From NCBI GenBank assembly GCA_026874595.1, contig CM049312.1:80248929-80312928 (forward strand): 64,000 nucleotides of DNA. Reading direction: 5' to 3'. The notes below the pieces were generated by a model. It did no database searches. It saw only the letters and a program-made list of their open reading frames with translations, and was not told where the DNA came from. The stretch comes from Sipunculus nudus (taxonomy: Eukaryota > Annelida > Sipuncula > Golfingiida > Sipunculidae). Position 1 is the stretch's first letter; every line of letters starts with the position of its first letter. Of the stretch, positions 1-50,196 are shown piece by piece. The translations under genes and the position numbers were made by a program.

Positions 1-2780
1 CATTATTCAGGTTTTATTGGCTCTTTCTTTAGGATACATTATTCAGGTTTTATTGGCTCTTTCTTTAGGATACATTATTCAGGTTTTATTGGCTCTTTCT
101 TTAGGATACATTATTCAGGTTTTATTGGCTCTTTGTTTAGGATACATTATTCAGGTTTTATTGGCTCTTTCTTTAGGATACATTATTCAGGTTTTATTGG
201 CTCTTTCTTCAGGATACATTATTCAGGTTTTATTGGCTCTATTTTAGGATACATTATTCAGGTTTTATTGGCTCTTTCTTTAGGTTACATTATTCAGGTT
301 TTATTGGCTCTTTCTTTAGGATACATTATTCAGGTTTTATTGGCTCTTTCTTTAGGATACATTATTCAGGTTTTATTGGCTCTTTCTTTAGGATACATTA
401 TTCAGGTTTTATTGGCTCTTTCTTTAGGATACATTATTCAGGTTTTATTTGCTCTTTCTTTAGGATACATTATTCAGGTTTTATTGGCTCTTTCTTTAGG
501 ATACATTATTCAGGTTTTATTGGCTCTTTCTTTATGATACATTATTCAGGTTTTATTGGCTCTTTCTTTAGGATACATTATTCAGGTTTTATTGGCTCTT
601 TCTTATAGATACATTTTTCAGGTTTTGTTGCCTCTGTGTTTAGGATACATTATTCAGGTTTTATTGGCTCTTTGTTTAGGATACATTATTCAGGTTTTAT
701 TGGCTTTTTGTTTAGGATACATTATTCAGGTTTTATTGGCTCTTTGTTTAGGATACATTATTCAGGTTTTATTGGCTCTTTGTTTAGGATACATTATTCA
801 GGTTTTATTGGCTCTTTGTTTAGGATACATTATTCAGGTTTTATTGGCTCTTTCTTTAGGATACAATATTCAGGTTTTATTGGCTCTTTCTTTAGGATAC
901 ATTATTCAGGTTTTATTGGCTCTTTCTTTAGGATACATTATTCAGGTTTTATTGGCTTTTTCTTTAGGATACATTATTCAGGTTTTATTGGCTCTTTGTT
1001 TAGGATACATTATTCAGGTTTTATTGGCTCTTTCTTTAGGATACATTATTCAGGTTTTATTGGCTCTTTCTTAAAGATACATTATTCAGGTTTTGTTGCC
1101 TCTGTGTTTAGGATACATTATTCAGGTTTTATTGGCTCTTTGTTTAGGATACATTATTCAGGTTTTTTTGGCCCTTTTTTTAGGATACCTTATTCAGTTT
1201 TTATTGGCTTTTTCGTTAGGATACATTATTCAGGTTTTATTGGCTTTTTCGTTAGGATACATTATTCAGGTTTCATTGGCTCTTTGTTTAGGATACATTA
1301 TTATGGTTTTATTGGCTCTTTCTTTAGGATACATTATTCAGATTTTATTGGCTCTTTCTTTAGGATACATTATTCAGGTTTTATTGGCTCTTTCTTTAGG
1401 ATACATTATTCAGGTTTTATTGGCTCTTTCTTTAGGATACATTATTCAGGTTTTATTGGCTCTTTCTTAAGGATACATTATTCAGGTTTTATTGGCTTTT
1501 TCATTAAGATACATTATTCAGGTTTTATTGGCTCTTTCTTTAGGATACATTATTCAGGTTTTATTGGCTCTTTCTTTAGGATACATTATTCAGGTTTTAT
1601 TGGCTCTTTCTTTAGGATACATTATTCAGGTTTTATTGGCTCTTTCTTTAGGATACATTATTCAGGTTTTATTGGCTCTTTCTTTAGGATACATTATTCA
1701 GGTTTTATTTGCTCTTTCTTTAGGATACATTATTCAGGTTTTATTGGCTTTTTGTTTAGGATACATTATTCAGGTTTTATTGGCTCTTTCTTTAGGATAT
1801 ATTATTCAGGTTTTATTGGCTCTTTCTTTAGGATACATTATTCAGGTTTTATTGGCTCTTTCTTTAGGATACATTATTCAGGTTTTATTGGCTCTATCTT
1901 TAGGATACATTATTCAGGTTTTATTGGCTCTTTCTTTAGGATACATTATTCAGGTTTTATTGGCTCTTTCTTTAGGATACATTATTCAGGTTTTATTGGC
2001 TCTTTCTTTAGGATACATTATTCAGGTTTTATTGGCTCTTTGTTTAGGATACATTATTCAGGTTTTATTGGCTCTTTCTTTAGGATACATTATTCAGGTT
2101 TTATTGGCTCTTTCTTCAGGATACATTATTCAGGTTTTATTGGCTCTATTTTAGGATACATTATTCAGGTTTTATTGGCTCTTTCTTTAGGTTACATTAT
2201 TCAGGTTTTATTGGCTCTTTCTTTAGGATACATTATTCAGGTTTTATTGGCTCTTTCTTTAGGATACATTATTCAGGTTTTATTGGCTCTTTCTTTAGGA
2301 TACATTATTCAGGTTTTATTATTATTGGCTCTTTATTTAGGATACATTATTCAGGTTTTATTGGCTCTTTCTTTAGGATACATTATTCAGGTTTTATTGG
2401 CTCTTTCTTTAGGATACATTATTCAGGTTTTATTGGCTCTTTCTTTAGGATACATTATTCAAGTTTTATTGGCTCTTTCTTTAGGATACATTATTCAGGT
2501 TTTATTATTATTGGCTCTTTATTTAGGATACATTATTCAGGTTTTATTGGCTCTTTCTTTAGGATACATTATTCAGGTTTTATTGGCTCTTTCTTTAGGA
2601 TACATTATTCAGGTTTTATTGGCTCTTTCTTTAGGATACATTATTCAGGTTTTATTGTCTCTTTCTTTAGGATACATTATTCAGGTTTTATTGACTCTTT
2701 CTTTAGGATACATTTTACAGGTTTTATTGGCTCTTTGTTTAGGATACATTATTCAGAGTTTGTTGGCTCTTTGTATATGC
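1..2780 (+). repeat. 36-bp tandem satellite, array 1 (left end outside window)
   Basis: About 77 head-to-tail copies of a 36-bp unit that begins GGATACATTATTCAGG and ends GGCTCTTTCTTTA. Most units differ from the consensus by 0-3 bases. Because 36 is a multiple of 3, two plus-strand frames stay open for long stretches: one reads as repeats of LGYIIQVLLALS, the other as RIHYSGFIGSFF. The third plus frame has a TAG in each unit and all minus frames contain stops. Two 35-bp units (near 240 and 2150) switch the frame. Higher-order structure is visible: a GTTGCCTCTG marker recurs 468 bp apart (627 and 1095), and a unit carrying an extra TTATTA recurs 186 bp apart (2327 and 2513). I read this as noncoding satellite, because changes fall on all codon positions and stops occur in both long frames in one array or the other. 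Confidence 0.95.
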
Positions 2781-3165
2781 TACATTTGTTTTTTTTTTTT
2801 TGCTCTTTTTGAAAGCCATATTATTCGAGGTTTGTTGGCTCTTAATGAAAGCCATATTCAGGGTTTCGCAGCTTTTAGTGAAAACAACATTATTCAGGGT
2901 TTTGTTGGTGCTTTATTATTTATCGAAATTATACAGTTTTTTGTCATATAAAATAATATTGCTTTTATTAGTTATCTGTTAATGCCAAATATACAGGATT
3001 TTGGTGATGACATGTTACAGAATAATTATACTGGACCGCTATTTATAGAACAACCATACATGGTTTTTGCTGTTCTATGTTAAAGCCTAATTTTAAAGGT
3101 TTTTGTTGATTCTTTGTATAAGGCTAATTATACATGTTGTTATTAATCCTTTCTAATATAGCTTA
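2781..3165 (+). repeat. Decayed edge of satellite array 1
   Basis: Beyond the homogeneous array the same unit can be followed with increasing divergence. Successive segments begin GAAAGCCATATTATTCGAGG, GAAAGCCATATTCAGGG and GAAAACAACATTATTCAGGG, each followed by a TTGTTGG-like core. Fainter pieces follow near 3083 (AAAGCCTAATTTTAAAGG) and 3120. This is the usual picture of an array homogenised in the middle and decaying at its edge. The frame-A reading continues open to 2951, but composition alone may explain that. Confidence 0.7.
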
Positions 3166-4410
3166 AAGTTAACCACGTTCGAGCATGGACTTATTACTCC
3201 GTGTTTTACGCCATTGTCGGTCTCCACACCAGGGCTATAATCAGATAACTGACGCTTGTCCGGGACTTAGTAGTTGTTGCTACATCACAAAAGCGATTAG
3301 TCGTTAATCTTATTGACAAACGTAGTGAATTAGTCTCAAAATGCCTAACCCTGAAATTACCGAACCGTGCAAAAAGAAAATAGTAACAACATCTGGGTCC
3401 AACATTTACACCGTTTTACAACTGTCTATGTTTAAGATTCATACATAATGATTTCAATATTACATGATCTGATTCAAGATCTGAAAGGGTAAACATGAGT
3501 GAAGTCACATATATGTGAAGAATATTGCTCATTTTGACATTAATGGCGGGAAAATTACTTTCCTGAAATAATATCTCACCGTATAACTTACCTGATTGCA
3601 CTCCTGGTGTAGACAGAAAATAGTCTGAATAAAATATAACTGAATAAGAATATTAGAGGCTGCAGACTAGCTCAGTCCATATAGAATATTGAAGTCTGCA
3701 CGCTGGCTCAGTCAATAAGACAAGTTGTTTTATAGCTGTCAACATGACATTTATACGTCAAGCCTCATGTACACATTGTATACAAATATCCAACATTCAA
3801 ACCAATACAGCTATATTTGAAAAGATGTACAGACAACATTTTAAGAAATGCATGACAGGTTAATGTAAATCTGTCGATTTTTATTAATACCTACGAATTC
3901 TCCCAACTGTATGCTAAAGGCTGAAATAATTTTGCTGGTATAGTGTATAGGAGATCCTAAGAGATGCTTTTGTGCTCTATGTCACCCTACGTCGAGCCGA
4001 TATTTAATGCAAACATACTATATATACTGTAAAATCTGCGAATCGCCTCCCTAAACTGCTATGTGTAAGGTATTAATGGACTCTTCAATTGTTCCATTTG
4101 TTCATTGTCGCTATTTCTTTAACACGTATGGCATATCAGTTGACATTTATAGCAGTGGAATGCTTAAATGAATGTGATTTCAAATTATGCATGCTTTGAC
4201 TATTGTTTAGTCCTCTATAAAGCCAAATTATTTGGCCTTCTGTTGGTTCTTTGTGAAAGACATGCTGGACGGGCCTTGGATTGTCCCTTGTTAGTTGCCA
4301 ATATGTGTATGTGTGCACATGATTGATTAGTAATAATATCTTTTATCTGTTAAAGGCAATGATGGTGAAGGTTATTAATGGTCACTTGAAAGTTAACGAA
4401 TACCCAGTCG

Positions 4411-4426
4411 TTATATATAAATATAT

Positions 4427-4504
<78 letters not shown>
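4411..4504. repeat. (TA)n microsatellite, interrupted
   Basis: TA dinucleotide run with several TAAATA interruptions. The counterpart at 13452-13541 in copy 2 has a different number and spacing of interruptions, so the tract has changed since the duplication. Confidence 0.95.
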
Positions 4505-4507
<3 letters not shown>

Positions 4508-5070
4508 CATAAATTGTTTCGATCATCGCTAAAAATAAATTGATAACTGTAATATTAACAAGTTACTTGCCTTTATATCAGAGCGGTTGTTCTCCCAGCT
4601 CTTACAGTTGGCCGTACAGAAAAATGTTTATAGTCTAGAGATCCACCTCGCCATTAAATTGTATTTGCATTCATAGATTATGAAAAAGAGTTGTCAAGTA
4701 GTGATCCGGAAAAAAAGGTCCATGAAAAGGTAACGGGTTGTTCAAATATTCACCGCCAGATGTCAGTAAATCCTCTTGCTCGATAAACATGTGCACGATT
4801 GCGATGAGTATCGGTATGTGGTATGGTCTAAGAGAGGTTGATTTTCAGATGCTATAACATATCTGATATCTCAGTCTAATGGGATTCCCTAAAGATCTAA
4901 TTATCTTTATTGTGCTCGTCTGTAAGTTCTTTTTTTCTATGTACGCTGTACCATCCTGTACCGTCCCAAGACACACAAACACACACATATATATATTTAA
5001 GGTAGAGTACCCTCCGATTTTAAGTGCTTTTTGGCCTTCAGACAAGGCCAGAGCGATATAACACTCAGTG

Positions 5071-5125
<55 letters not shown>

Positions 5126-5933
5126 AGTGTGTGAGGGTGTGTGTGTGAACGTACTCATTGGGAAACACTATATTGACTGCACACCAAACGCGCGAGGGCT
5201 TTTTCATTTTTTCGGGACTTACACCCGGGTTCTCGCAAACGAAAATCTGTTTAAGTATATTTAAAGCATTTAAAGCCGGAAAAAAAATGTAGGGGAAGTT
5301 TCCCACAAGTCCTCAGAAAAAAACGTTTTGCTTGTAATTTGCTTTATGTGTGTGTGACAGCGCCATCTATATTGAGAGCTTTGCAAGATGGTTAGAAAAG
5401 TGTGTGGTAGTAAGCCGGGTGCTCGATAAAATGTTTAAACTGGTTATCCAACCTGTTTAGCGGAATCAGATCTTATTTAGATCGTGAGAGGTTAGAATTA
5501 GAACCTTACATTGCCATGGGTTCCAGGAGTAGGCCTAAACAGGAAACAAAATAAAAACTAATAGACTTTCTTATCTACATGATCCGTCTGATCTGCCAAG
5601 AAAAACTCTGAGCGGCTTGGTTCTCAAGTTTATAATAGATATAAAAAAAAAATTGATATCCCATCCAGTGTAAATATATGTAAATATGTGTTAAATTTAT
5701 TTATTTATTTATTTATTTTTGGCATTTTGCACTTATTTTTTCGAGAGAGCATGTTACATCATTATATTGTTACATTATTCATTGATTTCGTTCTAATCGT
5801 ATTGCATGTGTCTTGTTTCATTTTGGTGAAGATAATGAACTTTTCATAGAATTACAACATTAATCTAAACATATTAAATCTTCGCATACTTTATGTATTT
5901 TTACTTGTACCGCGATGTGTTATATAATGTTGT

Positions 5934-5936
<3 letters not shown>

Positions 5937-5986
<50 letters not shown>
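5937..5986. repeat. (TA)n microsatellite
   Basis: Pure TA run ending at TACAGGGAAGC. The counterpart in copy 2 is at 14957-15005. Confidence 0.95.
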
Positions 5987-5989
<3 letters not shown>

Positions 5990-6364
5990 GGAAGCATGTA
6001 CATTAGCCTGATTGGCTACTTTTGTAATCCTGCTATAAATAAATATGTTTAAATAAAGTGTGCTTGATATGCTGTTTGTAGGTCCTCCCTATGACACGAA
6101 GACATAACATGAACTGAAATTCCTCGCAGGTTGTCCTCACAAGTTATGCGCTAAGTCAATGCATCGTTCTCACGTCAAACCAGCCTTAAAAAAAGTGTGC
6201 GAGGAAACATGCGTTCCCTAAGTGTTAAGGATCTCAGTAGCTCTTCTAAGTAACACTAGAAGAACTGTTAGTCCTCGGAAGTATAATGTGAAAGCAAGGT
6301 CTTCTCATGTACGCGTATACGCGTATGTGTTTGTTTGTGTACAAGTTCATAAAATGCATCAATG

Positions 6365-6427
6365 CATTTAATGTTACTACCCGCACGTTTCGTGCTCACT
6401 TCATGGCACTTATCAGGTAAGTAAATG
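6365..6427 (-). ncRNA. Hammerhead-ribozyme fold in PLE remnant, copy 1 (core mutated)
   Basis: Read on the minus strand, the segment folds as a type-I hammerhead. Stem I is CATTT/AAATG plus TTAC/GTAA with an internal loop between them. The first core strand is CTGATAA (6410-6416). Stem II is GTGC/GCAC with a 10-nt loop (6392-6409). The second core strand is GAA (6389-6391). Stem III is a minimal two-pair AC/GT with a 6-nt loop (6379-6388), and the nucleotide at the cleavage site is A (6378). A very short stem III is known for hammerheads carried by Penelope-like elements, and this one lies about 145 bp 3' of a PLE endonuclease on the same strand. The core differs from the CUGANGA consensus at G8 (A here), which should cripple cleavage. 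The fold was assigned by eye. Confidence 0.65.
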
Positions 6428-6570
6428 GTGTTGGTTTATATTTGTTCAGGTATGGGTGCGTGAGTGAGTGTGTGAGATAAATAAGGACTGGCATTATTTT
6501 GTACGTCATGATTAGTAGATTCTACTGTTTACATAGGGTACATCTGTTAACCAATGTTGTCATAGCTGGA

Positions 6571-6882
6571 TTAGCGATAATGGACCATGTAATACTGTGA
6601 GAAATGCCTTGGCGTATGAGTTTCCAAATGTTTTGATAGTTCTGTTTCTTTATCATACTGCTGGCATTTAAAGGACTTCTTGTGGTTCGCATAGCGGCTT
6701 ATGAAAGTATTTCCTGTGTTTCCTATGTATGAGACGGTCCCGTTGTTTGTTGTTATATCAGCTTTGTAAATAACACTTGTTATTTTGCAGTGGCCGTTCA
6801 GTGGACATTCTCCTTTATTCCTGCAGTTGCAAGTTCGCTTGTGTTGGGGACTGATTAGCGGTGGGTGTCGGTTCTTTTTCAT
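6571..6882 (-). pseudogene. Penelope-like element GIY-YIG endonuclease fragment, copy 1
   Basis: A 103-residue frame reading towards lower coordinates. Its N-terminal part has a cysteine cluster of the form CNCR-x3-ECPLNGHC, followed by VIYKA and, about 12 residues later, SYIG, then an F-x2-RY and NHKKSF, and TELSKHL. This order (CxC zinc finger, IY...YIG, R, NH, LSKH) is that of the GIY-YIG nicking endonuclease at the C-terminus of Penelope-like retroelements, which cuts the DNA target so that the reverse transcriptase can prime. The expected tryptophan after LSKH is absent, and the continuation is broken by stops (the next codons read SSYDNIG between stops). No reverse transcriptase lies upstream: homology stops at the duplication boundary. 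This is a 5'-truncated relic. The copy-2 frame has the same predicted protein. Confidence 0.85.
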
Positions 6883-6888
6883 AGTCGA

Positions 6889-7353
6889 AAAAGTAAAGTC
6901 AGTTGAAAAACCTTAACATGCTTTGTAAATAGTATCAAGGATATTAAAGTTTAAATTCATTCGTGACCAAAGTACACAGGTACAAAACAAGCTACACCCA
7001 AGATTGTCCTGCTAACTTTTATGATGTATTTACCCTGCAAATTAAATGGTTGTAGACGTAGTATAAATTTACAAAATAGGGCATGGTACTTTCTGAAGAA
7101 ACCTTGACGAAAGTACAGATTTCGCACTCTGTATCACCAGTTTTCTATCGTTGTGCAAAATGGTATGACCACATGTAATCAATAGAACATGAATTTTGGC
7201 GGGTTGCTTCAATCCATGTTCTGAAAACTGACCATTTTTCGACGACATGAAAATCAACGGTGTCTTATTTTACTTTTCCAGCCAGAGCAATACTATATAA
7301 TTTTTTTTTGCTGAAAGAATCATATAACTTAATTCACACAAACACCCACACAC

Positions 7354-7407
<54 letters not shown>

Positions 7408-8318
7408 CTATTCATCCAATTAAAAATTTACAAGACAATATTTTCATGAGAATGAAACGTTGCATCAGAAACCCATCCACAATACCCAAAGGAAACAACC
7501 GGTAATGTTTCAATTCCCATCAAAAAACCCAATATTTCTGTCTTTAAAGTTTCATATTAAGCATTACCGTGTATATGTGATTCATAGCTCTTCTGGTGGT
7601 TCCTGAAAACCTGAAACGAAATTTGAAGCATAAATTAGTTCAGTTGTACCTGTGAACGTGTCATATGCATCGTTGAAGTCTTTATCCAGTTGGACATGTT
7701 TTCATTACTTACACAGAAACGGCTCTATTTCGTGTATTTCACCGATACAGAGGCAAATTATTGAATGAAATATGTCTGTGTTAGAATCACATAGGCTACC
7801 AACTGATTCAGTTAACTTAAAAGGTTAATTTTATAATAAAGGTCCAATCAAACCAACCTTTCAGTGTTTATTTCCATATAATTTTTCCATATTTTATTAT
7901 CAGGGTAGAGTAAAATCAATACAGATACAATTGTATGGTTGTCTATAATATAAGACAACAAAAGTACTGCTGAATCTATATATATGTGTGTTAATGCGTA
8001 CCCGTAAATGTGTATTTACACCTAAAGATAATACTCAAATATATGCTAAAAGCCGGAACATTAGAGCTTTCACTGATACCGCCTCTACCTGAGTAGTACT
8101 TTTATATGCATCATGTTGCCTCACGTCAAAATACATAAACCCTATGCCCTTTCATGCATGAAATATGTATGTAAACACCATTTTGAAATGTTATCAATGG
8201 ACCTCCCATCTCTCTTCAATTTTCGTCTTCAAACACGTAATACGAAGACAAATCAGTTGAGATACATGGAAGTGAATGATGAGAAAATAAAATGATTGGG
8301 CAATTAACCATTCATATT
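6889..8318. other. Spacer between unit 1 and array 2, gene-free
   Basis: Present once in the window. It joins the end of the first PLE remnant to the first 36-bp unit of array 2. It contains a (TA)n tract (7356-7404) preceded by CA-rich sequence, and otherwise only short frames without recognisable domains. If the duplication is a simple tandem one, the same sequence should precede array 1, just left of this window. Confidence 0.75.
7356..7404. repeat. (TA)n microsatellite
   Basis: Pure TA run preceded by a short CACACAAACACCCACA stretch. Confidence 0.95.
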
Positions 8319-11300
8319 AAGGATACATTATTCAGGTTTTATTGGCTCTTTGTTTAGGATACATTATTCAGGTTTTATTGGCTTTTTCTTTAGGATACAT
8401 TATTCAGGTTTTATTGGCTTTTTCTTTAGGATACATTATTCAGGTTTTATTGGCTCTTTGTTTAGGATACATTATTCAGGTTTTATTGGCTCTTTCTTTA
8501 GGATACAATATTCAGGTTTTATTGGCTCTTTCTTTAGGATACATTATTCAGGTTTTATTGGCTCTTTCTTTAGGATACATAATTCAGGTTTTATAGGCTC
8601 TTTCTTTAGGATACATTATTCAGGTTTTATTGGCTCTTTGTTTAGGATACATGATTCAGGTTTTATTGGCTCCTTCTTAAGGATACATGATTCAGGTTTT
8701 TTTGGCTCTTTGTTTAGGATACATGATTCAGGTTTTATTGGCTCTTTCTTTAGGATACATTATTCAGGTTTTATTGGCTCTTTCTTTAGGATACATTATT
8801 CAGGTTTTATTGGCTCTTTCTTTAGGATACATTATTCAGGTTTTATTTGCTCTTTCTTTAGGATACATTATTCAGGTTTTATTGGCTCTTTCTTTAGGAT
8901 ACATTATTCAGGTTTTATTGGCTCTTTCTTTATGATACATTATTCAGGTTTTATTGGCTCTTTCTTTAGGATACATTATTCAGGTTTTATTGGCTCTTTC
9001 TTAAAGATACATTATTCAGGTTTTGTTGCCTCTGTGTTTAGGATACATTATTCAGGTTTTATTGGCTCTTTGTTTAGGATACATTATTCAGGTTTTATTG
9101 GCTTTTTGTTTAGGATACATTATTCAGGTTTTATTGGCTCTTTGTTTAGGATACATTATTCAGGTTTTATTGGCTCTTTCTTTAGGATACATTATTCAGG
9201 TTTTATTGGCTCTTTCTTAAAGATACATTATTCAGGTTTTGTTGCCTCTGTGTTTAGGATACATTATTCAGGTTTTATTGGCTCTTTGTTTAGGATACAT
9301 GATTCAGGTTTTTTTGGCCCTTTTTTTAGGATACCTTATTCAGTTTTTATTGGCTTTTTCGTTAGGATACATTATTCAGGTTTTAATGGCTTTTTCGTTA
9401 GGATACATTATTCAGGTTTCATTGGCTCTTTGTTTAGGATACATTATTAAGGTTTTATTGGCTCTTTCTTTAGGATACATTATTCAGATTTTATTGGCTC
9501 TTTCTTTAGGATACATTATTCAGGTTTTATTGGCTCTTTCTTTATGATACATTATTCAGGTTTTATTGGCTCTTTCTTTAGGATACATTATTCAGGTTTT
9601 ATTGGCTCTTTCTTAAGGATACATTATTCAGGTTTTATTGGCTTTTTCATTAAGATACATTATTCAGTTTTTATTGGCTCTTTCTTTAGGATACATTATT
9701 CAGGTTTTATTGGCTCTTTCTTTAGGATACATTATTCAGGTTTTATTGGCTCTATCTTTAGGATACATGATTCAGGTTTTATTGGCTCTTTCTTAAAGAT
9801 ACATTATTCAGGTTTTATTGGCTCTTTCTTTAGGATACATTATTCAGGTTTTATTGGCTCTTTCTTTATGATACATTATTCAGGTTTTATTGGCTCTTTC
9901 TTTAGGATACATTATTCAGGTTTTATTGGCTCTTTCTTAAAGATACATTATTCAGGTTTTGTTGCCTCTGTGTTTAGGATACATTATTCAGGTTTTATTG
10001 GCTCTTTGTTTAGGATACATTATTCAGGTTTTATTGGCTTTTTGTTTAGGATACATTATTCAGGTTTTATTGGCTCTTTGTTTAGGATACATTATTCAGG
10101 CTTTATTGGCTCTTTGTTTAGGATACATTATTCAGGCTTTATTGGCTCTTTGTTTAGGATACATTATTCAGGTTTTATTGGCTCTTTCTTTAGGATACAA
10201 TATTCAGGTTTTATTGGCTCTTTCTTTAGGATACATTATTCAGGTTTTATTGGCTCTTTCTTTAGGATACATTATTCAGGTTTTATTGGCTTTTTCTTTA
10301 GGATACATTATTCAGGTTTTATTGGCTCTTTGTTTAGGATACATTATTCAGGTTTTATTGGCTCTTTCTTTAGGATACATTATTCAGGTTTTATTGGCTC
10401 TTTCTTAAAGATACATTATTCAGGTTTTGTTGCCTCTGTGTTTAGGATACATTATTCAGGTTTTATTGGCTCTTTGTTTAGGATACATGATTCAGGTTTT
10501 TTTGGCCCTTTTTTTAGGATACCTTATTCAGTTTTTATTGGCTTTTTCGTTAGGATACATTATTCAGGTTTTAATGGCTTTTTCGTTAGGATACATTATT
10601 CAGGTTTCATTGGCTCTTTGTTTAGGATACATTATTAAGGTTTTATTGGCTCTTTCTTTAGGATACATTATTCAGATTTTATTGGCTCTTTCTTTAGGAT
10701 ACATTATTCAGGTTTTATTGGCTCTTTCTTTATGATACATTACTCAGGTTTTATTGGCTCTTTCTTTAGGATACATTATTCAGGTTTCATTGGCTCTTTC
10801 TTAAGGATACATTATTCAGGTTTTATTGGCTTTTTCATTAAGATACATTATTCAGGTTTTATTGGCTCTTTCTTTAGGATACATTATTCAGGTTTTATTG
10901 GCTCTTTCTTTAGGATACATTATTCAGGTTTTATTGGCTCTATCTTTAGGATACATTATTCAGGTTTTATTGGCTCTTTCTTAAAGATACATTATTCAGG
11001 TTTTATTGGCTCTTTCTTTAGGATACATTATTCAGGTTTTATTTGCTCTTTCTTTGGGATACATTATTCAGGTTTTATTGGCTTTTTGTTTAGGATACAT
11101 TATTCAGGTTTTATTGGCTCTTTGTTTAGGATACATTATTCAGGTTTTATTGGCTCTTTCTTTAGGATACATTATTCAGGTTTTATTGGCTCTTTCTTTA
11201 GGATACATTATTCAGGTTTTATTGGCTCTATCTTTAGGATACATTATTCAGGTTTTATTGGCTCTTTCTTTAGGATACATTATTCAGGTTTTATTGGCTC

Positions 11301-11820
11301 TTTCTTTAGGATACATTATTCAGGTTTTATTGGCTCTTTCTTTAGGATACATTATTCAGGTTTTATTGGCTCTATTTTAGGATACATTATTCAGGTTTTA
11401 TTGGCTCTTTCTTTAGGTTACATTATTCAGGTTTTATTGGCTCTTTCTTTAGGATACATTATTCAGGTTTTATTGGCTCTTTCTTTAGGATACATTATTC
11501 AGGTTTTATTGGCTCTTTCTTTAGGATACATTATTCAGGTTTTATTGGCTCTTTATTTAGGATACATTATTCAGGTTTTATTGGCTCTTTCTTTAGGATA
11601 CATTATTCAGGTTTTATTGGCTCTTTCTTTAGGATACATTATTCAGGTTTTATTGGCTCTTTCTTTAGGATACATTATTCAGGTTTTATTGTCTCTTTCT
11701 TTAGGATACATTATTCAGGTTTTATTGACTCTTTCTTTAGGATACATTTTACAGGTTTTATTGGCTCTTTGTTTAGGATACATTATTCAGAGTTTGTTGG
11801 CTCTTTGTATATGCTACATT
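8319..11820 (+). repeat. 36-bp tandem satellite, array 2
   Basis: About 97 copies of the same 36-bp unit as array 1. It starts abruptly after TTCATATTAA at 8318, with an already canonical unit, and ends in degraded units. Marker units show block amplification. GTTGCCTCTG occurs at 9025, 9241, 9961 and 10429, spaced 216, 720 and 468 bp (6, 20 and 13 units). A run of rare variants starting at 9241 is repeated 1188 bp later (33 units). The 13-unit spacing is shared with array 1. One 35-bp unit near 11375 changes the frame, as in array 1. A unit with CATTATTAAGG, repeated with the 1188-bp block, puts stops in the otherwise open RIHYSGF frame. Confidence 0.95.
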
Positions 11821-12190
11821 TGTTTTTTTTTTTTGCTCTTTTTGAAAGCCATATTATTCGAGGTTTGTTGGCTCTTAATGAAAGCCATATTCAGGGTTTC
11901 GCAGCTTTTAGTGAAAACAACATTATTCAGGGTTTTGTTGGTGCTTTATTATTTATCGAAATTATACAGTTTTTTGTCATATCAAATAATATTGCTTTTA
12001 TTAGTTATCTGTTAATGCCAAATATACAGGATTTTGGTGATGACATGTTACAGAATAATTATACTGGACCGCTATTTATAGAACAACCATACATGGTTTT
12101 TGCTGTTCTATGTTAAAGCCTAATTTTAAAGGTTTTTGTTGATTCTTTGTATAAGGCTAATTATACATGTTGTTATTAATCCTTTCTTAA
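11821..12190 (+). repeat. Decayed edge of satellite array 2
   Basis: Same series of diverged units as at the right edge of array 1 (GAAAGCCATATTATTCGAGG, then GAAAGCCATATTCAGGG, then GAAAACAACATTATTCAGGG). A few base differences include a shorter T tract and a change that opens the stop seen in copy 1 near 2950. Confidence 0.7.
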
Positions 12191-13452
12191 AATCTAATAT
12201 AGCTAAAAGTTAACCACGTTCGAGCATGGACTTATTACTCCGTGTTTTACGCCGTTGTCGGTCTCCACACCAGGGCTATAATCAGATAACTGACGCTTGT
12301 CCGGGACTTAGTAGTTGTTGCTACATCACAAAAGCGATTAGTCGTTAATCTTATTGACAAACGTAGTGAATTAGTCTCAAAATGCCTAACCCTGAAATTA
12401 CCGAACCGTGCAAAAAGAAAATAGTAACAACATCTGGGTCCAACATTTACACCGTTTTACAACTGTCTATGTTTAAGATTCATACATAATGATTTCAATA
12501 TTACATGATCTGATTCAAGATCTGAAAGGGTAAACATGAGTGAAGTCACATATATGTGAAGAATATTGCTCATTTTGACATTAATGGCGGGAAAATTACT
12601 TTCCTGAAATAATATCTCACCGTATAACTTACCTGATTGCACTCCTGGTGTAGACAGAAAATAGTCTGAATAAAATATAACTGAATAAGAATATTAGAGG
12701 CTGCAGACTAGCTCAGTCCATATAGAATATTGAAGTCTGCACGCTGGCTCAGTCAATAAGACAAGTTGTTTTATAGCTGTCAACATGACATTTATACGTC
12801 AAGCCTCATGTACACATTGTATACAAATATCCAACATTCAAACCAATACAGCTATATTTGAAAAGATGTACAGACAACATTTTAAGAAATGCATGACAGG
12901 TTAATGTAAATCTGTCGATTTTTATTAATACCTACGAATTCTCCCAACTGTATGCTAAAGGCTGAAATAATTTTGCTGGTATAGTGTATAGGAGATCCTA
13001 AGAGATGCTTTTGTGCTCTATGTCACCCTACGTCGAGCCGATATTTAATGCAAACATACTATATATACTGTAAAATCTGCGAATCGCCTCCCTAAACCGC
13101 TATGTGTAAGGTATTAATGGACTCTTCAATTGTTCCATTTGTTCATTGTCGCTATTTCTTTAACACGTATGGCATATCAGTTGACATTTATAGCAGTGGA
13201 ATGCTTAAATGAATGTGATTTCAAATTATGCATGCTTTGACTATTGTTTAGTCCTCTATAAAGCCAAATTATTTGGCCTTCTGTTGGTTCTTTGTGAAAG
13301 ACATGCTGGACGGGCCTTGGATTGTCCCTTGTTAGTTGCCAATATGTGTATGTGTGCACATGATTGATTAGTAATAATATCTTTTATCTGTTAAAGGCAA
13401 TGATGGTGAAGGTTATTAATGGTCACTTGAAAGTTAACGAATACCCAGTCGT

Positions 13453-13540
<88 letters not shown>

Positions 13541-14106
13541 ACCGCATAAATTGTTTCGATCATCGCTAAAAATAAATTGATAACTGTAATATTAACAAGT
13601 TACTTGCCTTTATATCAGAGCGGTTGTTCTCCCAGCTCTTACAGTTGGCCGTACAGAAAAATGTTGTTTATAGTCTAGAGATCCACCTCGCCATTAAATT
13701 GTATTTTCATAGATTATGAAAAAGAGTTGTCAAGTAGTCATCCGGAAAAAAAGGTCCATGAAAAGGTAACGGGTTGTTCAAATATTCACCGCCAGATGTC
13801 AGTAAATCCTCTTGCTCGATAAACATGTGCACGATTGCGATGAGTATCGGTATGTGGTATGGTCTAAGAGAGGTTGATTTTCAGATGATATAACATATCT
13901 GATATCTCAGTCTAATGGGATTCCCTAAAGATCTAATTATCTTTATTGTGCTCGTCTGTAAGTTCTTTTTTTCTATGTACGCTGTACCATCCTGTACCGT
14001 CCCAAGACACACAAACACACACATATATATATTTAAGGTAGAGTACCCTCCGATTTTAAGTGCTTTTTGGCCTTCAGACAAGGCCAGAGCGATATAACAC
14101 TCAGTG

Positions 14107-14163
<57 letters not shown>

Positions 14164-14953
14164 AGTGTGTGAGGGTGTGTGTGTGAACGTACTCATTGGG
14201 AAACACTATATTGACTGCACACCAAACGCGCGAGGGCTTTTTCATTTTTTCGGGACTTACACCCGGGTTCTCGCAAACGAAAATCTGTTTAAGTATATTT
14301 AAAGCATTTAAAGCCGGAAAAAAAATGTAGGGGAAGTTTCCCACAAGTCCTCAGAAAAAAACGTTTTGCTTGTAATTTGCTTTATGTGTGTGTGACAGCG
14401 CCATCTATATTGAGAGCTTTGCAAGATGGTTAGAAAAGTGTGTGGTAGTAAGCCGGGTGCTCGATAAAATGTTTAAACTGGTTATCCAACCTGTTTAGCG
14501 GAATCAGATCTTATTTAGATCGTGAGAGGTTAGAATTAGAACCTTACATTGCCATGGGTTCCAGGAGTAGGCCTAAACAGGAAACAAAATAAAAACTAAT
14601 AGACTTTCTTATCTACATGATCCGTCTGATCTGCCAAGAAAAACTCTGAGCGGCTTGGTTCTCAAGTTTATAATAGATATAAAAAAAAATTGATATCCCA
14701 TCCAGTGTAAATATATGTAAATATGTGTTAAATTTATTTATTTATTTATTTATTTTTGGCATTTTGCACTTATTTTATCGAGAGAGCATGTTACATCATT
14801 ATATTGTTACATTATTCATTGATTTTGTGTCTTGTTTCATTTTGGTGAAGATAATGAACTTTTCATAGAATTACAACATTAATCTAAACATATTAAATCT
14901 TCGCATACTTTATGTATTTTTACTTGTACCGCGATGTGTTATATAATGTTGTG

Positions 14954-15008
<55 letters not shown>

Positions 15009-15383
15009 GGAAGCATGTACATTAGCCTGATTGGCTACTTTTGTAATCCTGCTATAAATAAATATGTTTAAATCAAGTGTGCTTGATATGCTGTTTGTAG
15101 GTCCTCCCTATGACACGAAGACATAACATGAACTGAAATTCCTCGCAGGTTGTCCTCACAAGTTATGCGCTAAGTCAATGCATCGTTCTCACGTCAAACC
15201 AGCCTTAAAAAAAGTGTGCGAGGAAACATGCGTACCCTAAGTGTTAAGGATCTCAGTAGCTCTTCTAAGTAACACTAGAAGAACTGTTAGTCCTCGGAAG
15301 TATAATGTGAAAGCAAGGTCTTCTCATGTACGCGTATACGCGTATGTGTTTGTTTGTGTACAAGTTCATAAAATGCATCAATG
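12191..15383. other. Gene-free interior of duplicated unit, copy 2
   Basis: Near-identical to 3166-6364. It holds (TA)n tracts at 13452-13541, 14108-14152 (followed by TG repeats) and 14957-15005, and no gene I can support. Confidence 0.7.
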
Positions 15384-15446
15384 CATTTAATGTTACTACC
15401 CGCACGTTTCGTGCTCACTTCATGGCACTTATCAGGTAAGTAAATG
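15384..15446 (-). ncRNA. Hammerhead-ribozyme fold in PLE remnant, copy 2 (core mutated)
   Basis: Same sequence and fold as the copy-1 hammerhead. Its core (TTAC/GTAA helix to TTAC/GTAA helix) spans 15393-15439. CTGATAA again carries A in place of the invariant G8, so the mutation predates the duplication. Stems I, II and the minimal stem III are all preserved. Confidence 0.65.
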
Positions 15447-15589
15447 GTGTTGGTTTATATTTGTTCAGGTATGGGTGCGTGAGTGAGTGTGTGAGATAAA
15501 TAAGGACTGGCATTATTTTGTACGTCATGATTAGTAGATTCTACTGTTTACATAGGGTACATCTGTTAACCAATGTTGTCATAGCTGGA

Positions 15590-15901
15590 TTAGCGATAAT
15601 GGACCATGTAATACTGTGAGAAATGCCTTGGCGTATGAGTTTCCAAATGTTTTGATAGTTCTGTTTCTTTATCATACTGCTGGCATTTAAAGGACTTCTT
15701 GTGGTTCGCATAGCGGCTTATGAAAGTATTTCCTGTGTTTCCTATGTATGAGACGGTCCCGTTGTTTGTTGTTATATCAGCTTTGTAAATAACACTTGTT
15801 ATTTTGCAGTGGCCGTTCAGTGGACATTCTCCTTTATTCCTGCAGTTGCAAGTTCGCTTGTGTTGGGGACTGATTAGCGGTGGGTGTCGGTTCTTTTTCA
15901 T
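15590..15901 (-). pseudogene. Penelope-like element GIY-YIG endonuclease fragment, copy 2
   Basis: 103-residue frame with the same predicted protein as the copy-1 fragment: cysteine cluster CNCR...CPLNGHC, VIYKA, SYIG, RY, NHKKSF, LSKH. The reading frame ends within two bases of the point where the two 9-kb units stop matching, so here too there is no reverse transcriptase upstream. The sequence on that side is an hAT-like element. Dead by truncation; the unchanged frame most likely reflects recent duplication rather than selection. Confidence 0.85.
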
Positions 15902-15902
15902 A

Positions 15903-16564
15903 ATCGATCATCGGTTTGAGCAAATCGATCGATGATCGATTATAAATCGGTTCAGACAAATATAAAGGAATATACAATTGTCTGTGAAACTATACTTTCT
16001 TAATCCAGCCAGCATGTCTAAGTAACTCTACCTTAAGAAAAGGGGTTTTTGCCTTTTTTATATTTTCCTTTCGTTTTATAACAATTTTGATGGCTGCCGA
16101 CATGCCAGAAAAATGACAGGCCCATATATTTTTTGTGTAAAAATTTTAAAAAAAGTGATCGAAATCTAAAAATATAATTAATCAAGTATGATCTATTTGT
16201 ATAATGTTAACTGCCTAAAGGCTTTGGGGTAATTATTTTCAATTGTTCTTAGTTTGAAAAACTCGGTCACTGTTGTTTGATTTTCAGTGCCAGTTATCAG
16301 ATTGATCATAATGATGCGTTTTACCATCTACCGTGTCATACTCCGTTACATACGGAAGTTATTTGGGAACACTGAGTCATTAAAGGAAGCGCGGGATGTT
16401 GTAAAAAAAGGAAGAATAATTTTTGACTATAACATTAAGGCATTCTGGAAAAAAAAACAATCATGATTATGGTGTAATCGATAGTTGCCTTTGGTAATCG
16501 AGCGCTTGAAAGTGGCAGCAAAGCGACTGACTATCGATAAAACTCGATGATCGGCCCACCACTA
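15903..16564. mobile_element. hAT-like non-autonomous element, left end truncated
   Basis: The right end, read inward, starts TAGTGGTGGGCCGATCATCG, a typical hAT-type terminus. The left part has the matching subterminal CGATCATCGG and further ATCGAT repeats (to about 15950), but the terminal dozen bases are replaced by the PLE sequence at the duplication boundary. The interior has no transposase frame. The 8 bp after the right end (GATCTGAT) has no partner on the left, as expected for a truncated copy. Confidence 0.65.
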
Positions 16565-18430: not shown

Positions 18431-19315
18431 TTAAAGTGCGCATGCCTGTGCCGGAACTTCAGCGCCATCTGTCACACTTAGTTTTTGTGATATGTCTCTG
18501 TCAGCTTCGGATTTAATTTTCTTTTCTCGTTCATGTATAGTTGCTTTTATTCTAGCATGTGTGTAATACATATTAAAGCTGTTAGCTATCATCGGTATAG
18601 GCAGCCCTGTAGCCAACATCCCAGCCATTGCGCATGCGGCTCCGACAATGTAGCCCAAACCGGAAGTTGGATGCGTGTCGCCATAGCCAACCGTCGTCAT
18701 GGTGACTATGCTCCACCAGAAACCGATAGGGATATGTAGAAACGAGTCATTTTCTTGGCTGAATTCAGCGTAATATATCATAGTGGAGAATATTACCATT
18801 CCAATAGCCATCAACATCACCAAAAGAAGCAACTCTTTCCAGCAAGCTTTTATAGACAAGAACATGATCTGCAGTCCTTTATGTTGTTTGACGATCTTCA
18901 AAACCCTTACGGCTCGCAGCGTGCTTGCTATAGACAAAACGCAGTAGGCGTAGAATATATCGTTGTCCAACCAAAAGCTTGGATCAACAATGTCGATAAT
19001 CATTAGTGTAAAATTTGGAAAGATTGAAAACAGGTCGACCACGTTGTAAAATGTAAAGAAAGTCATTTTATGATGCGGCCATGATATTAGTTTGAGTATA
19101 AACTCAAGCACGAACAATACCATGATGATTGAGTCTGTCCATAGCAAAACCGGATGTAGTTCCGTGCTGTAATACAGGATCACTTTTTGATTAGTTATGT
19201 TAACCAGCGTACTGCTGACGTCAGAGTTACTCGGAACACGGAAGTACGGGTGAGACTCGCAGCAAAGAATCCCAATGGATGCAAGGAGTAAGCACATGTA
19301 GAACAAGGACCACAC
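18431..19315 (-). CDS. Voltage-gated K+ channel, Shaw/Kv3-like, gene 1: exon with S1-S6 and C-terminus
   Basis: Encodes residues 175-468 of a predicted 468-aa pore subunit in the plasma membrane. The exon starts right after TTTTCAG with VWSLFY and joins in phase 0 to the T1 exon at 20369. S1 is about 175-193. A likely glycosylation site (NIT) lies in the S1-S2 loop. S2 carries the conserved acidic residue (FVLEFILKLI) and S3 the NVVDLFSIFP motif. S4 (about 300-320) reads VLSIASTLRAVRVLKIVK. The pore has TMTTVGYGD (filter about 382-387), and S6 has LPIPMIANSFNMYY, with PIP where most Kv channels have PVP. The C-terminus is short (about 45 residues, basic then acidic). Aligning S4 with Shaker, the first two gating arginines are serines (302 and 305), while R3, R4, K5 and R6 are R, R, K, K. 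The start is set by the acceptor, not by the upstream ATG inside the intron. Confidence 0.93.
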   Translation of the reverse strand: MWSLFYMCLLLASIGILCCESHPYFRVPSNSDVSSTLVNITNQKVILYYSTELHPVLLWTDSIIMVLFVLEFILKLISWPHHKMTFFTFYNVVDLFSIFPNFTLMIIDIVDPSFWLDNDIFYAYCVLSIASTLRAVRVLKIVKQHKGLQIMFLSIKACWKELLLLVMLMAIGMVIFSTMIYYAEFSQENDSFLHIPIGFWWSIVTMTTVGYGDTHPTSGLGYIVGAACAMAGMLATGLPIPMIANSFNMYYTHARIKATIHEREKKIKSEADRDISQKLSVTDGAEVPAQACAL

Positions 19316-20368
19316 CTGAAAATAAATTAAAAAAATATACAAGTGTGTATTTCGTTGGATTCCACAAATTGAAACACCTATCTAAAAGATTGTATTTTAT
19401 TCACTTCAAAATAAGTTTGATTCCTTGAAAGACGCCAGAGCGTAAAAATAGCTAGGTCTACAGGCGTTATCGTCATGATAGAAGTTAGGCAGCTAAGAAA
19501 AGAGAATTTTTGGGTGAGATGAACTCAACGGCATCAGATATCCAGCATCAGTCCTGGTTTCCCTGCCAGTGTTCACTCAGTAAATATTTGCAGCCAAAAA
19601 CCTTGAAAAGCATAAACAATTGCACTCTCGAGCGGAGCATTTGTATATCACATCAATATTATATTACTGCTAAAAATAAACACTATACGTTAGCGATGAC
19701 ATTCATATGAAATCAATTTGTTATACATTTTTTTTATATAACATAACTGCTGATAGCCTGTGTACCTCGATTTTGAAAATATTTAGTTATGTAAGTGTAT
19801 ACAACTTTATGACTGGTTTATTTCGACAGGCTTCACTGAAGTAACAAGTTATTCCAACTGAAGTTCCAGTTTATATTTACTAGGTCTAACTCGTGATATG
19901 GTTGCACATTTAGTGGTAGCACTTTCTAGGACGGTGGACTTGTGACCGCAGGGTTGTGGGTTCTCGTTCCGTTCTGACCGCCGTCTTCGCTAAAGACTCC
20001 AAACCGCAGTTCGTACCACAAGGATGCGCTCTCCCACCCAGAAGTGAACGGGACTGGTTATTTACGGCAGGCGAATGTAGAACGGATAACCTTCTAGACC
20101 AGGAAGGTACAGTGTGAAGTCGTATGAAACTATAAACAGATTATAAACCCCCATCCCACCTTAAACAACACTATGCTTTACACTAAAACACAAGACGATT
20201 TACACTGCATTGACCGTGACATGGTTTTAGGATATCTTGGTTGTTTAAATCTGGTAGCTTACTCTCAAACCTTTTTGCCAATTTGTTGTATATAACGTAT
20301 ATACTACTTCTACGAACGAAATTGTCAATCATTAAGTGTTTTACAATACGGAAGATATTTCTACTCAC
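19316..20368 (-). other. Intron of channel gene 1
   Basis: 1053-bp intron: donor GTGAGT right after the codon AGG (20369), acceptor TTTTCAG before GTGTGG (19315). It lies exactly at the T1/S1 boundary and in phase 0, as in gene 2. It contains a SINE-like insertion near 19905-20160. Confidence 0.9.
19905..20160 (+). mobile_element. tRNA-derived SINE-like repeat inside channel gene 1 intron
   Basis: Starts with an A-box-like TTTAGTGGTAGCAC, followed about 45 bp later by a B-box-like GTGGGTTCTCGTTCC (one base off spacing from GGTTCGANTCC). A unique-looking body and AAAC-rich 3' part follow. Inserted antisense to the channel gene. No clear target duplication was seen, so this is a moderate call. 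Confidence 0.4.
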
Positions 20369-20890
20369 CCTGGCAGCAACAGAACTGCGTGGACATTCCA
20401 AGACCAGCCAAAGCTTGTGACGCCACCTGTTGACCAACAAATCAGTCTTATAAAAACGTTCGTAGCACAGTTCCAACGAAACATCGTCAAACAGGTGCGA
20501 CAAATCTTCCAGCGACCTCTGTTCATTTTCATAATCTTGATACTGGATCCAACAACACTCTGATATGGCGGTTTCCGGGATCCCCCAGAACGCTAGCTCC
20601 CTCTGGAGAGTTCTGCCGCAAACACACTTCGGAATGTGCAGCTCGTTTGTGCGATAATAGTCTAAGATATGGGCGAATATTTTAGCGCTTCTGTCAAAAT
20701 AATATTCCTTTGCTGCGGGGTCGTAGTGACTGTCTGATGGGGTGAGCTGCGCAAGCAGGGAGCCAGGGACTTTGCTGAGTGTATCTGATGTAGTTATGAA
20801 CGTCTCCCCACCGACATTCAGGGTCACTCGGATAGGCTTCCGGCTCATCTCTATCCCGGACCGGCAGGGGGCGCCGGTATCTTCACACAT
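20369..20890 (-). CDS. Voltage-gated K+ channel, Shaw/Kv3-like, gene 1: exon with T1 domain (start codon)
   Basis: Encodes residues 1-174. The BTB/T1 tetramerisation domain (about 20-125) begins IRVTLNVGGETF and includes FDRSAKIFAHILDYYRT. The zinc-binding signature HX5CX20CC, characteristic of Shaw-, Shab- and Shal-type but not Shaker-type channels, is complete: H85, C91, C112, C113. FWGIPETAISECCW resembles the Kv3/Shaw version closely. The chosen ATG is at 20890; only 11 bases upstream, a plausible acceptor (TTTATCTCGTAG) suggests that the 5' UTR continues in an upstream exon. The exon ends SSVAAR at donor GTGAGT and joins VWSLFY. The longer open frame to 21016 is intronic or UTR. The domain decides which subunits assemble together. 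Confidence 0.92.
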
Positions 20891-21504
20891 CTTGCTAGTA
20901 TCTACGAGATAAATTATATGAAAAAATGATAATAATGAGGGAACCTCTATGTCCAAAATGCTTTTTATAATGATCTCACTATAACGTTCTGAAACCAAAA
21001 TACATTGAAACACCAAATTAGTAAAGTGAACATAATTGGGAAGTAGAAAATTGGACTATAATGGCACCATGCGTATGTTAATTAAAAAAAAAATAAAAAA
21101 AGGAAAACAATTTACAGTGAAAGTAATCGGAAAAATTATCTCCGCTGGCGAAGGTAACAGAGATCGATTGGATCAATAAGGTTTGCGCGTATATCCAAAC
21201 AAGAATTAACAAATAGATTTTTTGACAGTGATACCTGACATGAATAATTTAAATGAATAGCCTATGATAGCCCTGCAGTGGCTGGTGACTGGTTGAAGTA
21301 ATGGGGATACTTATCCCGTCAAGTCGGCGTCCATTACTTATATAAATCTTCCAGTGGGTCCAGCCAGGATTCTTATGAATGCTTATGTTGGTCTGACACC
21401 CAAATCTCAGTACAGCCGAAAGGTTTACTTTACGGCAGACCAGCCCAATGTGGTTTTACTTAGCTTCCAGATGCGGTTTCTTGCATGGTCTGTGCTCTAT
21501 TATT

Positions 21505-48724: not shown

Positions 48725-49741
48725 TCACGTGACCTCTCCTTCAGACGGCAGCGCGCCACTGTTTATATATGTAAACTTGCCACATTGTTCCGTAAACCCA
48801 CCATTTCTGCCAGACCTGACGGAAAATGGCGTCTTTCCGTGTAACACGGAAATGCTGAAAGGACTTTTTCCAGTGACGCCATCTCTGGCTTCGTTTTCGC
48901 TTCGTATTACAACAATATCACCGGTAGTATCTATTGTCTTTTCACAGTCACTGGGTTGTGGTTTGTTGCGTCTTATTTGAGCTTTCGTGAAAGAATAATA
49001 GAGATTGAAATTGCTAGCTATTATTGGAATTGGGAGACCGGTAGATAACATGCCACATACTGCGCACACTGCTCCCACCAAATAACCCCATCCGGAGGTC
49101 GGGTGTTTGTCACCATACCCGACCGTCGTCATGGTAACGATACTCCACCAAAAACCTATTGGAATGTTTAAGAAATCATCTTCCTGGTGGAATTCTGCAA
49201 AGTATATCAAAGCGGAAAATATTAACATCCCCATGAACATGAGCAATAACAAGAGAAACAGTTCATGTAAACTAGTGCGTATTGCTAACATCAGTACCCT
49301 GACCCCGGTAACATGGCGGGCGTACTTCAGCAAGCGAACGGCTCGCAGCACTTCAAACAGACAGCACACAAAGTAAATCCTAAACAAGACTTCACTTCTC
49401 CAAAAATCTGGATAAATTTGCTCCAAAAGTACCGCAGCCAACACTGGAACAATACTCAAAAAGTCTATAATGTTATACACAGATTTTACAAATCCGCATT
49501 TCGATGGGCTCAAAGCAAATCGCAGGACGAGATCAAAAAGGAATATCCCAAAACAGACGAAGTCTGCCATTATTAATGCTGGCAGAGGGTCCGTTGTTAC
49601 GTACATCCGTAGTTTGGGGTTCGTCAGGTTGGTCAAATCTCGTCGAGGTTTCTCTAATGGGATTCTGAAGGTCGGGTCTGTAATCATACACAAGATTGCG
49701 ACGGAGGCTAAAACCACCGTGGTAAATATGACACCCCACAC
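48725..49741 (-). CDS. Voltage-gated K+ channel, Shaw/Kv3-like, gene 2: exon with S1-S6 and C-terminus
   Basis: Encodes residues 158-495 of a predicted 495-aa subunit. The acceptor TATTTCAG precedes VWGVIF, joined in phase 0 to the T1 exon. S1 is about 158-177. The S1-S2 loop holds NLT, a possible glycosylation site where gene 1 has NIT. S2 has an aspartate (FLFDLVLRF) where gene 1 has glutamate. S3 is YNIIDFLSIVP. S4 (about 282-300) reads VCCLFEVLRAVRLLKYAR. The filter TVGYGD is at about 363-368 and S6 reads LPIPIIASNFNLYY. The cytoplasmic tail (about 85 residues) is longer than in gene 1, with several S/T-rich stretches. Against Shaker, gating position 1 is C (284) and position 2 is E (287), with R, R, K, R following. 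Same strand, exon structure and PIP motif as gene 1. Confidence 0.93.
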   Translation of the reverse strand: MWGVIFTTVVLASVAILCMITDPTFRIPLEKPRRDLTNLTNPKLRMYVTTDPLPALIMADFVCFGIFLFDLVLRFALSPSKCGFVKSVYNIIDFLSIVPVLAAVLLEQIYPDFWRSEVLFRIYFVCCLFEVLRAVRLLKYARHVTGVRVLMLAIRTSLHELFLLLLLMFMGMLIFSALIYFAEFHQEDDFLNIPIGFWWSIVTMTTVGYGDKHPTSGWGYLVGAVCAVCGMLSTGLPIPIIASNFNLYYSFTKAQIRRNKPQPSDCEKTIDTTGDIVVIRSENEARDGVTGKSPFSISVLHGKTPFSVRSGRNGGFTEQCGKFTYINSGALPSEGEVT

Positions 49742-50196
49742 CTGAAATAAAAAAAATGAATTAATCAAATGACTTAGTGTTTTTTGCGTTAAGTCTAACA
49801 AGCGTGTAAACTTACTTCGTCTAATAAGCACTGATAGTACTATTTTAAAACTCATTATTTACTGTTATTTAATTTCATGTTTCAATCGGTTTTATTTGCC
49901 GCATAATAATAGTTATATTTACGTGATATGGCCCGTTTCGAGCACACTGCCGCGCGTCCTTTTTTAACTGCATAATGATAATAATGTAATAGCAAGTATT
50001 CGAGTAATGCCAATATGTCTTTTCAGTGGTGTGATATGGCGTGACGTCATTAACCTTTATATATGTAATACACCAGCTATATTGATTCAATTGCTTAGCG
50101 AGAAACAACATATTCGAAAGACTTTATACTGTGTGTAATAATGATACTTATGGGAGCAAGGCTTCCTGACTTTACCGCGTGATGTATAACACCTAC
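49742..50196 (-). other. Intron of channel gene 2
   Basis: 455-bp phase-0 intron with donor GTAGGT after codon AAG (50197) and acceptor TTTATTTCAG (49742). It occupies the same protein position as the gene 1 intron. Confidence 0.9.

What the first reader, a model, noticed from the sequence alone, without database searches (positions are those of the whole stretch)
6365..6427. Hammerhead-ribozyme fold next to a Penelope-like endonuclease fragment
Seen: on the minus strand all three hammerhead helices can be drawn around CTGATAA and GAA core strands (stem I TTAC/GTAA and CATTT/AAATG, stem II GTGC/GCAC, minimal stem III AC/GT, cleavage-site A). Known: PLEs carry hammerheads with a very short stem III in their terminal repeats. 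Here the fold is 3' of the EN fragment on the same strand, where a pLTR would be. The single core deviation is G8 to A, which predicts a dead or very weak ribozyme preserved as a fossil.
Basis: partly seen in the sequence, partly recalled or inferred. Interest (0 to 1): 0.7.

Follow-up and report, generated by a model that had tools for sequence, protein, structure and literature searches.

The report
Dead hammerhead ribozyme in Penelope retrotransposon
A broken copy of a small self-cutting RNA sits at the end of a decayed Penelope-like jumping gene in an animal genome, and many relatives elsewhere in the same genome keep the intact RNA core, so this is a new example of a known kind.

Summary
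The motif at 6365-6428 (minus strand) occurs again at 15384-15447 through a tandem duplication. It lies in the terminal repeat (pLTR) of a 5'-truncated Penelope-like element (PLE). The window's own genome could be searched: 58 matches, 30 loci fetched. Of 37 pLTR rows from these loci, 30 have G at position 8 and 25 the whole catalytic core; the window lineage (4 rows on one contig) has A8. The motif starts 41-45 nt after the endonuclease stop codon in 24 of 37 rows. A pattern for the intact motif has 101 genome matches against 0 for the reversed control. Rfam sees no hammerhead in the window or in 18 relatives. A model built only from phage hammerheads ranks the two window copies first in 64 kb, though at E 0.4, and scores relatives down to E 2e-4. 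Covariation inside this young family is not above chance. Cleavage by relatives and the dead state of this copy are inferred, not shown. Verdict: new member of a known kind.

The parts
6365..6428 (-). Hammerhead-like motif of the pLTR, with A instead of G at position 8 (CTGATAA)
15384..15447 (-). Second, identical copy of the motif in the tandem duplication
6340..6364 (-). Short tail behind the motif; similarity to dispersed copies ends here (3' edge of the element)
   Evidence: matches end at query position 573; tails of relatives
6340..6849 (-). Part of the 5'-truncated PLE that is shared with dispersed copies of the genome
   Evidence: query positions about 64-573
6571..6912 (-). Open frame with the endonuclease fragment (GIY-YIG type by recalled motif); 5' limit of the element near 6888
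6525..6632 (-). Continuation of the endonuclease in another frame (decayed copy)
15593..15907 (-). Second copy of the endonuclease fragment

Best explanation
The motif is the hammerhead ribozyme of a Penelope-like retrotransposon family, seen here in an old, 5'-truncated, decayed copy. In better preserved members the order is RT-EN, about 45 nt, hammerhead in the pLTR, then a short or a long tail. Shown: the anatomy, the conserved core in relatives, the number of copies and the loss of G8 in the window lineage. Inferred: in transcripts of intact or tandem members the hammerhead cuts after A17 (between GGGTA and GTGAC) and so trims or separates element RNAs, probably helped by the PLE protein or by pairing of two motifs, as published for other PLE hammerheads. 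Because C3 faces A8, the window copy should cleave very weakly or not at all; it is a fossil.
For: G8 in 30 of 37 pLTR rows and complete core in 25 of 37. 101 genome matches to the intact motif, 0 to the reversed control. The motif starts 41-45 nt after the EN stop in 24 of 37 rows. RT-EN frames upstream on the same strand, tandem units of about 2.36 kb. A model from phage hammerheads only ranks the window site first of 64 kb (E 0.4) and hits relatives at E 2e-4 to 0.22. A natural relative, L099, folds as a hammerhead at -15.1 against a best -15.8 kcal/mol. Head-to-head pLTRs and long/short tails as described for PLEs. Literature: minimal type-I hammerheads in PLE pLTRs (PMC7761336, PMC6155905, passages); G8C and C3G abolish cleavage in the Anolis PLE (PMC11167929, main text).
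Against: Rfam finds no hammerhead here or in 18 relatives at E up to 10. Covariation is not above shuffles (1 pair changed on both sides, 336 of 500 shuffles as many; a slid structure gave up to 3). Stem II copies that differ from the majority are mostly intact or broken, with one double compensating change. The phage-derived model gives no hit in 5 of 26 loci (L097, L098, L110, L113, L118), of which L098 and L113 have the whole core, and E 2.5 in L121. The best fold of the window copy is not a hammerhead. No cleavage was measured; in Anolis the motif did not cleave without protein and its mutants still inserted (PMC11167929).
Confidence: 0.88

Rival explanations
1. The stretch is kept in PLE copies only because pLTR and tail are the start region of reverse transcription and protein binding; the hammerhead likeness is inherited, and no member of this family uses it any more.
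For: In the Anolis PLE, hammerhead mutants insert as well as wild type and no RNA ends at the cleavage site were seen (PMC11167929, main text). The part 3' of the motif is conserved too (84 exact matches, 0 controls).
Against: 25 of 37 rows keep every catalytic residue, and the majority form can fold within 0.7 kcal/mol of its best fold. Recent common descent alone could explain the conservation, so this is weak.
Confidence: 0.25
2. The motif belongs to a small non-autonomous retrozyme (circular-RNA element with type-I hammerheads) rather than to a PLE.
For: Animal retrozymes carry type-I hammerheads (PMC7229834, passages). Several copies are short inserts with paired motifs and little or no coding sequence (L153-L156).
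Against: EN stop 41-45 nt upstream in 24 of 37 rows; RT-EN tandem units. The short inserts are inverted pairs with the same tails, not direct repeats of about 300 bp.
Confidence: 0.04
3. Chance resemblance next to a transposon fragment.
For: Rfam silent, best fold different, modest score of the window copy.
Against: Dispersed relatives restore the missing G8; about 0.004 such motifs expected per window.
Confidence: 0.01

Closest known systems
Minimal type-I hammerheads of Penelope-like elements (Cervera and De la Pena 2014; Lunse et al. 2017; neither held, known through passages of PMC7761336 and PMC6155905)
   Same: Place in the pLTR of an RT-EN element, type-I order, very short stem III, intact core in relatives
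   Different: Window copy has A8. The family's stem III is ACC-TGCG-GGT, three pairs; how this compares with each published PLE sequence could not be checked
PAc, the Poseidon PLE of Anolis carolinensis, with its hammerhead (PMC11167929, main text read)
   Same: pLTR with hammerhead, optional tail, AT-rich insertion sites, GIY-YIG endonuclease
   Different: In PAc the ORF starts at stem II; in L164 the recognisable RT frame begins about 160 nt after the motif. Cleavage was measured in PAc, not here
Penelope elements of the rotifer Adineta vaga (PMC3846280, passages)
   Same: Head-to-head inverted pLTRs, tail at one of the inverted pLTRs, partial tandems, 5' truncation
   Different: A text search of that paper for hammerhead or ribozyme found no occurrence; it describes low copy numbers, here over a hundred motif copies
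Metazoan retrozymes (PMC7229834, passages)
   Same: Type-I hammerhead in a dispersed retroelement
   Different: Here the motif follows an EN stop codon and repeats with coding units of about 2.36 kb

Membership tests
Type-I hammerhead ribozyme (window copy) | Conserved core CUGANGA ... GAA ... H17 with G8 | tested here: not met
   A at position 8 in both window copies
Type-I hammerhead ribozyme (family in this genome) | Complete catalytic core | tested here: met
   25 of 37 rows; G8 in 30 of 37
Type-I hammerhead ribozyme (family in this genome) | Three helices around the core, entered by stem I | tested here: met
   92.7% of pair cells form standard pairs, 12.7-46.7% when slid
Type-I hammerhead ribozyme (family in this genome) | Compensating changes in the helices | tested here: inconclusive
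   1 of 19 pairs changed on both sides, no more than in shuffles; mean column identity 91%
Type-I hammerhead ribozyme (family in this genome) | Match to a hammerhead covariance model | tested here: inconclusive
   Rfam: none at E up to 10 in 19 loci; own model from phage hammerheads: relatives E 2e-4 to 0.22, five of 26 loci without a hit
Type-I hammerhead ribozyme (family in this genome) | Self-cleavage at H17 | not testable with these tools
   needs the bench
Penelope-like element | RT and GIY-YIG EN in one ORF | tested here: inconclusive
   Frames up to 362 aa join a YRDDGL stretch to the EN-like part; names rest on recalled motifs; Pfam, PDB sequences and low-confidence models did not confirm them
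Penelope-like element | pLTRs in tandem or inverted head-to-head order, optional tail | tested here: met
   Neighbours within 3 kb: 23 divergent, 5 tandem, 0 convergent; tails long/short in 17 of 21 divergent pairs
Penelope-like element | Hammerhead in the pLTR | tested here: met
   41-45 nt after the EN stop in 24 of 37 rows
Retrozyme | Direct repeats of about 300 bp with hammerheads and no coding sequence | tested here: not met
   Copies seen are PLE fragments, tandem units of about 2.36 kb or inverted pairs; not every genomic copy was read

The most novel reading that the evidence does not exclude
The intact members form a distinct PLE hammerhead whose stem III is a three-pair hairpin, ACC-UGCG-GGU, closed by a C(UNCG)G tetraloop (its stability is recalled). 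Such a cap could let a single minimal motif cleave by itself, where published minimal PLE hammerheads need a dimer or the PLE protein. The window lineage has lost both the third pair (C15.3 to G) and G8.
Probability: 0.25. Interest if true: 0.5.

Novelty: new member of a known kind. Interest (0 to 1): 0.32.

Why it matters
The in vivo role of the hammerheads conserved in PLEs is called a mystery in the literature (PMC7761336, passage). This genome holds about a hundred natural copies that match the intact motif beside natural copies changed only at the catalytic base (6 of 37 rows), a ready natural set for asking whether loss of the ribozyme stops spread. It also shows that the Rfam hammerhead models passed over this PLE motif in the 18 relatives tested, so scans that rely on them will undercount.

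Tried and rejected
Rfam at gathering threshold on the window and at E up to 10 on 5000-8500, on 6340-6450 and on 19 loci (L093, which is the window's own stretch, plus 18 relatives): no hammerhead. Relatives in IMG/VR: 90 stretches matched a loose pattern; 39 distinct sequences with clean stems and a classical stem III were taken from them, none with this family's stems. The EN protein in IMG/VR and in phage records: no relative. GTDB genomes: 0 exact matches and 2 unrelated pattern matches. EN by Pfam, PDB sequence, two AlphaFold models (mean pLDDT 35.0 and 35.7) and a fold search: uninformative.

Cleavage scars: of the 84 exact matches to the part 3' of the cleavage site, 39 lack the exact intact-motif pattern nearby. 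34 of these were read in L166-L194 and 5 lie in loci already held. Two of the 34 begin exactly at G1.1 (L184, L189), but in L189 the joined inverted tail overlaps in letters, and the pattern itself forces that edge, so this is not evidence of processing. A wider pattern to settle it, genome counts of position-8 losses, a looser pattern for diverged motifs and a search of the genome with RF00163 (sent once) did not complete.

Full report
Observation. It is present twice, because 1-6888 and 9046-15907 are a tandem duplication. A motif descriptor with positions 7 and 8 left open has only these two hits in the window and 3 in 47 Mb of Markov sequence. Rfam shows no hammerhead in the window, in 5000-8500 or in the 111 nt around the site. 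The best single-strand fold is a different one.

Surroundings. Upstream on the same strand lies an endonuclease fragment, 6571-6912, whose C-terminal part continues in another frame at 6525-6632. Similarity to dispersed genomic copies runs from about window 6849 to 6340, so the element ends near 6340 and is truncated on its 5' side. The duplication breakpoint, 6888/15907, lies close to that truncation.

Relatives. The window is G000:C7:80248929-80312928 of a 1.43-Gb genome in 153 contigs. A 613-nt query gave 58 matches (249 first-look candidates, 40 scored, so a lower bound) and 30 loci. From these loci 37 distinct pLTR places were extracted; one (L103) is cut off before the motif and one (L110) has a partly deleted core. 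Position 8 is G in 30, A in 6 and missing in 1; L110 is among the 30 only by its gapped alignment. All core residues are present in 25 of 37. Six rows have position 8 as their only core change: four are the window lineage on contig C7, the others are L097 and one place in L122. L097's neighbour L098 keeps G8. A further A8 copy, L183, was seen. A pattern for the intact motif has 101 matches and 0 in the reversed control; a pattern for the part 3' of the cleavage site has 84 and 0.

Link to the coding part. Relatives carry open frames of up to 362 aa that join a YRDDGL stretch (RT, by recall) to the EN-like part: L103, L120 and L165. L120 and L165 have a core-complete motif downstream on the same strand; L112 and L109 have shorter RT-EN frames with a motif downstream. 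The motif begins 41-45 nt after the EN stop in 24 of 37 rows; in the other 13, among them the four of the window lineage, the expected EN end was not recognised. In L164 and L165 motifs repeat at 2.36-2.37 kb with RT-EN sequence between them. Pfam, PDB sequences and low-confidence structure models did not confirm the domain names; these rest on recalled motifs plus the architecture below.

Independent model. From 12 phage hammerheads only, with stem III reduced to two pairs, I built model R2. Without filters the two window copies are the best of 64 kb, 11.9 bits, E 0.4; the next is 9.6 bits, E 2.3. Over 27 sources (window and 26 loci) 22 motif places in relatives score 13.9 to 23.3 bits, E 0.22 to 2e-4; L095 and L096 score as the window does; L121 has E 2.5; L097, L098, L110, L113 and L118 give no hit. 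Rfam sees no hammerhead in any of the 19 loci it was given.

Covariation. On 36 rows (26 distinct) 92.7% of pair cells form standard pairs, against 12.7-46.7% when the partner is slid, but changes on both sides are no more frequent than in shuffles (1 pair, 336 of 500), and a structure slid by three columns had 3. The one double change, C-G to T-A in stem I, belongs to the window lineage. Among 46 non-majority copies, one shows a double compensating change in stem II and 15 pair cells are unpaired. The family is too young (91% mean column identity) for this test to decide.

Element architecture. Merging 100 of the 101 places with the 84 gave 139 copies; neighbours within 3 kb are 23 divergent, 5 tandem and 0 convergent, and one convergent pair appears at 6.3 kb. 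Some of these are segmental duplicates. In fetched loci 17 of 21 divergent pairs have one long and one short tail, 3 have two long, 1 could not be classed. Flanks are often (TA)n. Head-to-head pLTRs with a tail at one of them are described for Adineta vaga Penelope (PMC3846280, passages), and cutting and extension of both strands at AT-rich DNA for the Anolis PLE PAc (PMC11167929, main text). So this is the known PLE pattern.

Mechanism. Shown: anatomy, presence of the full core in relatives, loss of G8 in the window lineage. Inferred: cleavage after A17 in transcripts of intact members, and a dead window copy. In PAc, G8C and C3G each abolish cleavage, cleavage needs the protein, and the mutants still insert (PMC11167929); G8A, the change here, was not in the text I read. 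The role in PLEs is called a mystery (PMC7761336). The family's stem III, ACC-TGCG-GGT, is one pair longer than in the window; that TGCG in this frame makes a stable tetraloop is recalled.

Novelty. PLE hammerheads are known (Cervera and De la Pena 2014 and Lunse et al. 2017 are not held; seen through citing papers). Searches pairing hammerheads with cephalopod, octopus or mollusc (lists capped at 20 of 31, 20 of 36 and 1 of 1) showed no title or abstract on this family; a giant squid genome paper reports 235 hammerhead 1 matches, without a link to PLEs in the passage seen. The window copy is an ordinary fossil of a known kind, with an unusually informative set of relatives.

Noticed in passing
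window 1-6888 and 9046-15907: Tandem duplication, 97% identical; its right breakpoint falls at the 5' truncation of the PLE fragment. Two further copies of the PLE part lie on the same contig, about 0.13 and 0.48 Mb away (L095, L096).
   Followed up: partly
window 1-2843 and 8317-11876: Long arrays of a 36-bp satellite (unit like GGATACATTATTCAGGTTTTATTGGCTCTTTGTTTA) that stay open in reading frame over hundreds of codons.
   Followed up: no
window 18431-21055 and 48725-50808, minus strand: Two gene pieces pairs with BTB_2 and Ion_trans domains, probably two related voltage-gated potassium channel genes.
   Followed up: partly
L005 (IMGVR_UViG_3300031366_000001) 542-4551: Seven distinct classical type-I hammerheads within about 4 kb of one viral contig; L013 also holds several.
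   Followed up: no
L122, minus-strand frame of 198 aa: A different open frame with a YIGETG...RMNNH stretch, possibly the endonuclease of another PLE family.
   Followed up: no
L115, minus strand, offset 802: Another hammerhead-like core, CTGATGATCGGGTCGCGTCCCGTGAAAC, unlike this family; possibly from a second PLE family.
   Followed up: no
L191 and L192 (C17:21270290-21270500, C17:21560470-21560680): The part 3' of the cleavage site is repeated in tandem with a 60-nt period behind one nearly intact motif, at two loci that look like duplicates.
   Followed up: no
L153-L157 (C16, C14, C8, C10, C17): Short palindromic inserts of two outward-pointing motifs with one long and one short tail; in L153 and L154 the cores are only 5 and 7 bp apart.
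   Followed up: partly
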